Positions 28,463-30,457 of a stretch of DNA of 64,000 nt are shown here, piece by piece. The first letter of the stretch is position 1. Each line of letters begins with the position of its first letter. This DNA is from Nitrosomonas marina (GTDB taxonomy: Bacteria > Pseudomonadota > Gammaproteobacteria > Burkholderiales > Nitrosomonadaceae), in NCBI RefSeq assembly GCF_900111605.1, contig NZ_FOIA01000008.1, positions 1 to 64,000 on the forward strand, given 5' to 3'. Under the pieces are notes generated by a model. It was given only the letters and a program-made list of their open reading frames with translations, searched no databases and was not told where the DNA came from. A program made the position numbers and the translations under genes.

Positions 28463-28816
28463 ATGTCCAAGAAATCATTAAAACCTGTTTCCCTGGCTGT
28501 TGGTACGGCTTTTGTTGCTACCCTGGCCGCAGGTAATGTCTCATCTGAGGTTTCTTCTGCTGATAACCCATTCGTCATGAACGAATTATCCGGCGGCTAT
28601 ATGCAGCTTGCCTATGGCGGCGGCGGAGATAAATCAGAGAAAAAAGACAAATATGGCGAAGGCAATTGTGGCGGCAAGAAAGCCAAAGAAGAGGGGAAAT
28701 GTGGCGAAGGCAAATGCGGCGATGATATGAAAAAAAATATGGAAGGTAATTGCGGCGGCAAGAAAGCCGAAGAAGAAGGTAAGTGCGGCGAAGGCAAGTG
28801 TGGTAGTAGTAAATAG
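28463..28816 (+). CDS. hvfA: HvfA/bufferin-type Cys-repeat RiPP precursor
   Basis: A 117-residue exported precursor. The leader M-S-K-K-S-L-K-P-V-S... runs to about residue 32 and is followed by N-P-F-V-M-N-E-L-S-G-G-Y-M, the conserved segment of HvfA-type proteins. The core has six cysteines in E-G-[N/K]-C-G motifs (C69, C80, C85, C97, C108, C113), as two copies of a 28-residue unit. In this family a DUF692 enzyme converts such cysteines to modified copper-binding heterocycles. ATG at 28463 is chosen because GGAG lies nine bases upstream; an earlier in-frame ATG at 28424 lacks this. The modifying enzymes follow directly. Copper as the ligand is inferred from homologues. Confidence 0.85.
   Translation: MSKKSLKPVSLAVGTAFVATLAAGNVSSEVSSADNPFVMNELSGGYMQLAYGGGGDKSEKKDKYGEGNCGGKKAKEEGKCGEGKCGDDMKKNMEGNCGGKKAEEEGKCGEGKCGSSK
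28658..28813 (+). repeat. Two-copy 84-bp repeat coding for the Cys motifs
   Basis: The precursor core is a tandem duplication: unit 1 covers 28658-28741 and unit 2 covers 28742 to about 28813, with every Cys of the first unit matched 28 codons later. The DNA of the two copies differs at many third positions, so the duplication is not recent. Confidence 0.8.
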
Positions 28817-28838
28817 CCTGTGCCCAGGTATTTTTTTT
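28817..28838 (+). terminator. Mini hairpin plus T8 between precursor and modifying genes
   Basis: Right after the precursor stop, CCTG (28817-28820), TGCC and CAGG (28825-28828) form a small stem, followed by TA and eight T residues at 28831-28838. The DUF692 start codon is at 28840. It resembles a weak intrinsic terminator that would let only part of the transcripts proceed. Confidence 0.4.
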
Positions 28839-28839
28839 C

Positions 28840-29700
28840 ATGAGCACACTAGAGTATCCTGTTCATGGTGCGGGACTTGGTCTGCGGCGTACGATGATGC
28901 GTTCGCTGACAGACCAAGCTGCATGTCCGGTTGATTTCTGGGAAATTGCTCCAGAAAACTGGATAGGTGTTGGCGGTTACTATGGTAAGAAGCTGCACAC
29001 GCTTACAGAACAATATCCGTTTATATGTCATGGTTTATCGCTGTCGCTAGGTGGTCCTTCGCCGCTTGATGAAGCATTCTTGTGGCGGCTCAAAGGCTTT
29101 TTGAAAGAACATCAAATACGTTGCTACAGTGAACACCTGAGTTATTGCAGTGATGACGGCCATCTTTACGATTTGATGCCAATTCCATTCACAACAGAGG
29201 CGGTCCATTACGTTGCAAAACGAATAAAACGGGTTCAAGATTTTCTGGAACAGCGTATAGCAATAGAAAATGTATCGTATTATGCGGCACCGGGACAGCA
29301 AATGGCGGAGATAGATTTTCTGAATGCAGTTCTTGAAGAAGCTGACTGTGACCTTCTGCTCGATATCAACAATATCTATGTCAACAGTGTCAACCACTGT
29401 TACAAAGCAGAGGAATTTTTAAGGCAGATATCTGCCGAACGAACTCGTTATATCCATATAGCAGGCCATTACAATGAAGCAGAGGACCTGATTGTAGACA
29501 CGCATGGGGCTGATGTTATTGAGCCGGTCTGGTCGTTACTTGAAAAAGCGTATCAACAATTTGGAGTCATACCAACGTTGCTGGAAAGGGATTTTAATAT
29601 CCCCGCTTTGCATGAGCTGGTTTGCGAAGTGGACCATATTCGAGCGCTACAGTCCCGCTGGCAACATCGTGCCGAAATCGATTATAACCGGCATGCCTGA
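28840..29700 (+). CDS. hvfB: DUF692 multinuclear non-heme iron enzyme (MNIO), HvfB-like
   Basis: A 286-residue DUF692 TIM-barrel enzyme. Ligand-like residues typical of MNIO enzymes are visible: H64 in F-I-C-H-G-L-S-L-S, S-E98-H99-L, E143-N144, D175 with N178 in D-I-N-N-I-Y-V-N, H206 and H210 in Y-I-H-I-A-G-H, D220-T-H222-G and E249-R. Homologues oxidise Cys residues of the partner precursor with O2. The overlap of its stop with the next start and the precursor immediately upstream give a strong functional context. The substrate here should be hvfA. Confidence 0.9.
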   Translation: MSTLEYPVHGAGLGLRRTMMRSLTDQAACPVDFWEIAPENWIGVGGYYGKKLHTLTEQYPFICHGLSLSLGGPSPLDEAFLWRLKGFLKEHQIRCYSEHLSYCSDDGHLYDLMPIPFTTEAVHYVAKRIKRVQDFLEQRIAIENVSYYAAPGQQMAEIDFLNAVLEEADCDLLLDINNIYVNSVNHCYKAEEFLRQISAERTRYIHIAGHYNEAEDLIVDTHGADVIEPVWSLLEKAYQQFGVIPTLLERDFNIPALHELVCEVDHIRALQSRWQHRAEIDYNRHA

Positions 29701-30457
29701 ACGATCTGTGTTCATGCAGCAGCAATTTGATTTTGCTGCATATATTCGGGATCCCGGTGGTCATACACGTCCACATGATATAGAGGAACGGCGCATGAAA
29801 ATTTATTGCGACCTGTTCTATAACAATGTCGAAGCATTTATGGCCAATACGTATCCGGTTTTGCGAAGTATTCTGCGAGATGAACACTGGCACGCTATAA
29901 TCCGCGACTATTTCGCAAACCATAAGTCTCATACACCCCTTTTCCCTGAAATGCCGCGTGAGTTCCTGAAATATTTACAGAACGAGCGCAGTTTTAACGC
30001 GGAAGATCCACCCTTTATGCTGGAGCTCGCGCATTATGAGTGGGTCGAGCTTGCGTTATCGACACTTGAGGAGAAAACAGATCCGAAACAATTCGACGCG
30101 CAAGGCAATGTACTGTCCGGAATTCCGGTAGTTTCTCCCCTCGTATGGTTACTGAGTTATCAGTTTCCGGTACATAAAATCAGTCCAGAATTTCAACCCC
30201 AGACCCCAGATGAACTGGCAACAAACCTGATTGTATACCGTGACATAGACGATGAAATTCATTTCATTGAGGCCAATCCGGTTACGGCACGCTTGCTCAA
30301 ACTGATGATTGACAATGAATGCGACAACGGCCAGGCAGTTCTGGCACGAATTGCTGCAGATCTGCAACATCCAAAACCTGACCTTGTTGTCCAGCATGGC
30401 CAAGAAATCATGCTGGATTTTTTGAATCGGGGCATTTTATTAGGTGTGCGTCACTGA
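29693..30457 (+). CDS. hvfC: DUF2063 partner protein, HvfC-like
   Basis: A 254-residue protein whose N-terminal 100 residues match the DUF2063 putative DNA-binding domain (R-R-x-K-I-Y-x-D-L-F-Y-N-N-V-E at about 36-50, then Y-P-V-L-R). In MNIO systems this partner binds the precursor leader and the enzyme. ATG at 29693 overlaps the DUF692 stop by eight bases (ATGCCTGA), a coupled start; a second ATG at 29714 is possible. No DoxX-family gene (HvfD/BufD) follows, unlike in many such operons. Confidence 0.88.
   Translation: MPERSVFMQQQFDFAAYIRDPGGHTRPHDIEERRMKIYCDLFYNNVEAFMANTYPVLRSILRDEHWHAIIRDYFANHKSHTPLFPEMPREFLKYLQNERSFNAEDPPFMLELAHYEWVELALSTLEEKTDPKQFDAQGNVLSGIPVVSPLVWLLSYQFPVHKISPEFQPQTPDELATNLIVYRDIDDEIHFIEANPVTARLLKLMIDNECDNGQAVLARIAADLQHPKPDLVVQHGQEIMLDFLNRGILLGVRH

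What the first reader, a model, noticed from the sequence alone, without database searches (positions are those of the whole stretch)
28463..30457. HvfABC/bufferin-type RiPP metallophore operon without a DoxX gene
A 117-residue exported precursor with six E-G-[NK]-C-G motifs is followed by a DUF692 MNIO enzyme and a DUF2063 partner, overlapping by eight bases. This is the architecture of recently described copper-binding, cysteine-modified peptides (HvfA and bufferins). The DoxX-family gene often found with them is missing, and the neighbouring genes are unrelated. In an ammonia-oxidiser-like host, which needs much copper, such a peptide could be a copper buffer or copper import factor. The exact modification is not known.
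Basis: partly seen in the sequence, partly recalled or inferred. Interest (0 to 1): 0.75.

Follow-up and report, generated by a model that had tools for sequence, protein, structure and literature searches.

The report
Predicted copper-buffer peptide operon, Nitrosomonas
An ammonia-oxidising Nitrosomonas relative carries a complete three-gene HvfABC set that is predicted to turn six cysteines of a likely exported peptide into copper-gripping rings; it is a new member of a known family, and in its relatives the number of these cysteines appears to have shrunk several times to a single adjacent pair.

Summary
Confirmed. Window 28463-30457 holds a likely exported 117-aa precursor with six E-G-x-C-G motifs, a DUF692 MNIO and a DUF2063/RRE partner. 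NCBIfam cut-offs are passed for the HvfA repeat domain, HvfB and HvfC; the full-length HvfA model is missed. The genome has amoA; its nearest named relative is Nitrosomonas marina. So this is an HvfABC ("captophorin") cluster. Papers of 2026 assign 5-thiooxazole to this family; modification here is untested. Missing DoxX is the rule in this bacterial family (0 of 90 loci, against 42 of 52 other loci). The comparison adds a cysteine series: in 54 Nitrosomonas-type precursors all 192 paired motifs keep Lys before Cys, isolated ones in 43 of 53, the window's two EGNCG being isolated; 16 of 54 hold only one EGKCGEGKCG pair, which needs about six changes on the HvfB tree. A pair is not universal further out. 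Likely role: envelope Cu(I) buffering; import has no support. A genus-specific neighbouring membrane protein looked like a partner but failed a tree-based test.

The parts
28463..28816 (+). hvfA-like precursor, 117 aa; hydrophobic N-terminus (likely export signal), six E-G-x-C-G motifs
   Evidence: NF050137 37.6 bits over cut-off 19.5, NF050188 19.6 under 95; hydropathy only for the signal; 3017 proteins at E <= 0.001
28658..28720 (+). first core unit: isolated EGNCG (28658-28672), then adjacent pair EGKCGEGKCG (28691-28720)
28742..28804 (+). second core unit: isolated EGNCG (28742-28756), then adjacent pair EGKCGEGKCG (28775-28804)
28817..28839 (+). 23-base hvfA-hvfB gap with a weak terminator-like hairpin (5 pairs, T-run); by eye a similar gap is seen in L086 only, and the number of such sites is near that of shuffles
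28840..29700 (+). hvfB-like MNIO (DUF692) maturase, 286 aa
   Evidence: NF003818 443.1 bits over cut-off 360; PF05114 351.8 bits; only PF05114 match in the genome; motifs HGLSLSLGG, NNIYVN, YIHIAGH, VDTHG, LLERDFN shared with 3BWW
29693..30457 (+). hvfC-like DUF2063 plus NGO1945_C (RRE-type) partner, 254 aa; overlaps hvfB by 8 bases if this start is used
   Evidence: NF050145 306.2 bits over cut-off 142; PF09836 and PF22106; PDB 3dee match, E 4e-8

Best explanation
The three genes are an HvfABC set of the thiooxazole-peptide ("captophorin") family, and its likely product is an exported peptide whose cysteines would be oxidised to 5-thiooxazoles that would bind Cu(I) and so buffer copper in the cell envelope. 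Predicted steps: HvfC's RRE-type domain would hold the precursor's N-terminal part; HvfB, an iron MNIO that would need HvfC, would remove four hydrogens per cysteine (24 in all if all six are used); the modified peptide would leave through the Sec pathway; two neighbouring thiooxazoles of each EGKCGEGKCG pair would chelate one Cu(I), giving about two good sites per molecule, while the two isolated EGNCG motifs would be weaker or optional substrates. No DoxX partner would be needed. Shown here: gene order, family membership, conservation of the pair in the near relatives, absence of DoxX beside hvf genes in the lineage. Inferred: chemistry, export, copper binding, physiological role.
For: Curated models for all three proteins. 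R16-R17 and D251-F252 match the residues that PMC13097082 describes for Lys-Cys type MNIOs (matched by motif, FonB itself not held). Precursor directly upstream of hvfB and hvfC downstream in 54 of 54 type-1 loci read. These 54 were chosen by HvfB and not by precursor: each keeps at least one 5-spaced Cys pair; Lys before Cys in 192 of 192 pair motifs versus 43 of 53 isolated ones (Fisher p about 1e-7, rows not independent). 16 of 54 hold a single EGKCGEGKCG and no other Cys; on the HvfB tree this state needs 6 changes (5 forced by starred branches; bootstrap 6-7). PMC13097082: two repeats, not one, were needed by FonBC; [quoted passage not shown] Cu binding by native MS. Outside Nitrosomonas, relatives of a copper-type P-ATPase lie downstream on the same strand in 6 of 52 loci (CPC and heavy-metal motifs looked at in two of the six).
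Against: That ATPase adjoins 0 of 28 Nitrosomonas-type loci and 0 of 90 family loci (short flanks in the 90); other copper genes were not looked for there. The cluster is dispensable: 60 of 85 genus genomes have type-1 hvfB, and presence changes 8 times on the AspS tree. A pair is not universal in the wider family: L060 has three isolated Cys only, and in the sister genus g3 (probably Nitrosospira) 22 of 23 precursors beside hvfB are EF-hand fusions with a single E-G-x-C-G (my reading). PMC12538549 reports that in Microbulbifer one Cys of a pair is still modified when the other is Ala, so a pair is not required by that enzyme. Precursors with 3 or 4 Cys exist among the 120 listed homologs (12 of 120), so the gap between 2 and 5 seen in the 54 is not absolute. 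No expression data were found.
Confidence: 0.75

Rival explanations
1. The peptide is a copper acquisition factor that supplies ammonia monooxygenase, as methanobactin does for methane monooxygenase.
For: Host has AmoA and needs copper; the enzyme superfamily is that of methanobactin. PMC13003922 (passages seen) cites stimulation of N. europaea AMO by added copper.
Against: No transporter family among the four neighbouring proteins scanned; 28 of 125 family genomes have no hvfB match; [quoted passage not shown] MbnB model score 51 of 325.
Confidence: 0.1
2. The peptide chiefly protects against oxidants or other soft metals (Au, Ag, Hg) or against nitrosative by-products of ammonia oxidation, copper being incidental.
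For: Related clusters are reported under oxidative stress and gold (PMC13097082, section 11 read).
Against: No oxidant-defence family among the four neighbouring proteins scanned; copper-type P-ATPase relatives adjoin 6 of 52 other loci.
Confidence: 0.12
3. A plain unmodified metallothionein-like Cys peptide beside unrelated enzymes.
For: Low-complexity, Cys-rich sequence.
Against: Precursor, hvfB and hvfC stay together in 54 of 54 type-1 loci read; the precursor matches the HvfA repeat model; no Pfam hit of any kind.
Confidence: 0.03
4. The neighbouring 242-aa two-helix membrane protein (27280-28008, minus strand) replaces DoxX as membrane partner of the peptide in Nitrosomonas.
For: In 57 of 60 genomes with type-1 hvfB against 7 of 24 without (G087, which has neither, was left out of that count); on the same contig within 3 kb of hvfB in 40 of those 57; invariant Cys85-His86 in 42 aligned sequences.
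Against: On an AspS tree of 80 genomes it is a clade marker (3 changes) that stays when hvfB is lost (7 genomes); of 7 independent contrasts it follows hvfB in 1 and does not differ in about 6.
Confidence: 0.04

Closest known systems
HvfABC / oxazolin of Haemophilus influenzae
   Same: Exported EGKCG precursor, MNIO and DUF2063/RRE partner; six cysteines in both (PMC13419390 introduction: three AEGKCGEGKCG motifs)
   Different: Core here is two units of one isolated EGNCG plus one EGKCGEGKCG pair; no DoxX-like (HvfX) gene beside it; the full-length HvfA model is not reached (19.6 of 95)
MmrABC of Microbulbifer
   Same: EGKCG precursor, MNIO, DUF2063, described without DoxX; two-Cys cassettes (PMC12538549, section 9 part 1 read)
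   Different: Five to eight Cys there; two to eight in the 54 Nitrosomonas-type precursors read here, with isolated motifs and repeated reduction to one pair
Fontiphorin FonABC (captophorins)
   Same: Lys-Cys type MNIO, EGKCG repeats; 5-thiooxazole shown there (PMC13097082)
   Different: Seven modified sites in FonA; modification not shown here
Bufferins (Buf1 DUF2282, Buf2)
   Same: MNIO plus DUF2063 partner and exported Cys peptide (PMC12452194 passages)
   Different: Precursor has no DUF2282 match; BufB model 270 of 310
Methanobactin (MbnABC)
   Same: MNIO superfamily enzyme
   Different: MbnB model 51 of 325; partner is HvfC type; different ring system (PMC13419390)

Membership tests
HvfABC / EGKCG captophorin clusters | Exported precursor with repeated E-G-K-C-G motifs | tested here: met
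   NF050137 37.6 bits over 19.5; export judged by hydropathy only, no signal-peptide predictor run; the stricter NF050188 is missed at 19.6 of 95
HvfABC / EGKCG captophorin clusters | HvfB-type MNIO with metal-ligand motifs | tested here: met
   NF003818 443 over 360; alignment with 3BWW, which PMC13419390 gives as 72.4% identical to HvfB
HvfABC / EGKCG captophorin clusters | DUF2063/RRE partner encoded next to the MNIO | tested here: met
   NF050145 306 over 142; PF09836, PF22106
HvfABC / EGKCG captophorin clusters | 5-thiooxazole on Cys and copper binding of the product | not testable with these tools
   Needs expression and mass spectrometry
HvfABC / EGKCG captophorin clusters | DoxX gene (frequent, not defining) | tested here: not met
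   None beside the operon; 0 of 90 family loci, 42 of 52 other loci
Bufferin Buf1 | DUF2282 precursor | tested here: not met
   0 Pfam families at E up to 1
Methanobactin | MbnB equivalog and MbnC partner | tested here: not met
   MbnB 51 of 325; partner gene is HvfC type
Metallothionein | Match to a metallothionein family | tested here: not met
   0 Pfam families at E up to 1

The most novel reading that the evidence does not exclude
Nitrosomonas carries a natural dose series of thiooxazole peptides, from eight cysteines down to one EGKCGEGKCG pair reached about six separate times by substitution, stop or repeat deletion; the adjacent pair is the copper-binding unit under selection, isolated motifs are accessory, and ammonia oxidisers tune copper capacity by the number of units, without DoxX.
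Probability: 0.35. Interest if true: 0.6.

Novelty: new member of a known kind. Interest (0 to 1): 0.38.

Why it matters
Copper is both a needed cofactor and a poison for ammonia oxidisers, and no paper found here links this peptide class to them (0 papers; one search listed 12 of 266, none with Nitrosomonas). The Nitrosomonas series (2 to 8 sites, a pair always kept in the 54 read, no DoxX beside it) offers ready-made minimal peptides for the open question of how many thiooxazoles make one copper site, and whether DoxX is needed at all.

Tried and rejected
Rejected: (1) 242-aa neighbour as a DoxX replacement: strong raw association (57 of 60 against 7 of 24) vanished on the tree; its AlphaFold model (mean pLDDT 87.8) matched PDB chains at TM under 0.5 (best 0.49 by query length, best E 5.9e-06). 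(2) Horizontal origin of the Nitrosomonas hvfB from other Gammaproteobacteria: joining both hvfB lineages of the family is not rejected (p-AU 0.115). (3) Palindrome upstream of hvfA as an operator: not kept in the nearest relative L002 (by eye). (4) hvfA-hvfB hairpin as attenuator: four terminator-like sites against 2.9 in shuffles, and by eye not in relatives other than L086. (5) Tandem repeat at the DNA level in hvfA: none reported. (6) A second HvfA in the genome: both matches lie in this gene. (7) A captophorin-type DoxX elsewhere in this genome: only weak hits (E 0.0018 and 0.048) to the two ordinary DoxX genes. Eight of 125 family genomes have one at E <= 1e-15: seven on a contig other than that of hvfB, one in a genome without hvfB match; three of the eight surroundings were looked at and show no hvf gene.

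Type-1 means HvfB of about 70% identity or more; 54 of 60 type-1 genomes were read, the other six have hvfB cut by contig ends. The 90 family loci come from 89 genomes, the window's own included; 84 of 90 have 600 bases or more after hvfC, one (L151) has no hvfC match. Of the 52 other loci 44 precursors were parsed, with a filter of three or more motifs, so they cannot show the minimum; one search looked at the eight left out. The 120 homologs are the listed best of 3017 and were found with a pair-bearing query. In one search five genus genomes had no full AspS row and were left out. Which of Asn 177 and 178 equals HvfB N175 was not resolved. The ecoli, phage and plasmid collections were not searched.

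Papers: PMC13097082 passages and sections 11, 12, 13, 14; PMC13419390 outline with abstract, sections 4 and 23; PMC12452194 passages and section 15; PMC12538549 passages and section 9 part 1; PMC13003922 passages; all others search listing only.

Full report
What is there. The window belongs to a 3.49-Mb draft genome with amoA; its nearest named relative is Nitrosomonas marina Nm22 (HvfB 93% identical). Three genes in one direction lie at 28463-30457: a 117-aa precursor, a 286-aa DUF692 MNIO and a 254-aa DUF2063 protein. They reach the NCBIfam cut-offs for the HvfA repeat domain, HvfB and HvfC; the full-length HvfA equivalog is missed (19.6 of 95 bits). The top hit of the protein search, from Nitrosomonas sp. 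Nm51, already bears the name HvfA family in UniRef. The genome has one MNIO match and no second HvfA match.

How it probably works. MNIOs of this branch, with their DUF2063/RRE partner, convert Cys in E-G-K-C-G to 5-thiooxazole with loss of four hydrogens each; this was reported for fontiphorin and oxazolin (PMC13097082, PMC13419390), while the Microbulbifer peptide lost four hydrogens per Cys and its ring was assigned only tentatively (PMC12538549). Copper binding is reported for such products. The window's HvfB shares its conserved motifs with 3BWW, a close relative of HvfB, and has the Arg-Arg and Asp-Phe residues described for Lys-Cys type enzymes (matched by motif). The precursor has a hydrophobic N-terminus and so is likely exported. 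No peptidase or transporter family was found among the four neighbouring proteins scanned. That the peptide is modified, exported and binds copper is inferred, not shown.

DoxX. In 25 Nitrosomonas-type loci the protein predicted after hvfC is never DoxX; in 50 other loci it is in 35. With one DoxX protein as probe, 0 of 90 family loci and 0 of 28 Nitrosomonas-type loci match, against 42 of 52 others; 84 of the 90 have at least 600 bases after hvfC. So lack of DoxX beside hvf genes is a trait of the lineage. Eight of 125 family genomes hold a DoxX of that type, none on the contig of hvfB; the window's genome does not.

The cysteine series. For 54 Nitrosomonas-type genomes, picked by their HvfB, the precursor has 2 (16 genomes), 5 (21), 6 (12), 7 (4) or 8 (1) cysteines. 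Each has at least one pair spaced by five residues. In pair motifs the residue before Cys is Lys in 192 of 192; in isolated motifs in 43 of 53, the rest being Asn, Ser or Gln. The same split holds in the 120 listed homologs (496 of 496 against 157 of 203; these overlap with the loci and were found with a pair-bearing query) and in 44 other loci (210 of 210 against 93 of 121). The window's two EGNCG are isolated motifs. The 16 two-Cys precursors all keep EGKCGEGKCG; by eye, remnants of the other motifs show Cys replaced by Ser or Asp, a stop, or the unit deleted. On the HvfB tree the two-Cys state needs six changes, five of them forced by well-supported branches; the count cannot by itself tell loss from regain. 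Against a strict rule: 12 of the 120 homologs have 3 or 4 Cys, L060 outside Nitrosomonas has three isolated Cys, and in genus g3 (probably Nitrosospira) 22 of 23 precursors beside hvfB are EF-hand fusions with one E-G-x-C-G, the other having six Cys; three of the 23 show a second, four-Cys precursor further upstream (my reading).

Role. Relatives of a copper-type P-ATPase lie downstream on the same strand in 6 of 52 loci outside Nitrosomonas (CPC and heavy-metal motifs looked at in two), which favours copper handling. Literature reports induction by excess copper, gold and oxidants for this chemistry (PMC13097082, section 11). HvfB has no match in 28 of 125 family genomes and type-1 hvfB changes eight times on a genus tree, so it is not essential for ammonia oxidation. 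I therefore favour an envelope copper buffer over an import factor.

A lead that failed. The 242-aa gene divergent to hvfA is confined to one genus of four in the family (64 of 125 genomes) and coincides with type-1 hvfB (57 of 60 against 7 of 24). On an AspS tree of 80 genomes this is shared ancestry: the gene stays when hvfB is lost.

Verdict. A sound first reading. The locus is a new member of a published family; its interest lies in the host and in the natural series of site numbers.

Noticed in passing
window 27280-28008, minus strand: 242-aa protein of no known family, found in the Nitrosomonas genus only; predicted two N-terminal helices and a strand-rich domain with invariant Cys85-His86; fold matches under TM 0.5, to OST subunit and M1 aminopeptidase chains.
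   Followed up: yes
L142, L143, L174 (genus g3, probably Nitrosospira): Two EF-hand-fused E-G-x-C-G precursors near one hvfB: a single-motif one directly upstream and a four-Cys one about 0.6 kb further upstream.
   Followed up: partly
L144, L145, L146: Genomes of the window's genus with the other hvfB lineage and hvfC but no recognisable precursor within 0.7 kb upstream of hvfB.
   Followed up: no
L044, L031, L070, L061, L041, L052: Relatives of a copper-type P-ATPase downstream of hvf genes on the same strand, outside Nitrosomonas.
   Followed up: partly
L060: HvfA-type precursor (cut by the contig end) with three isolated E-G-K-C-G motifs and no adjacent pair.
   Followed up: no
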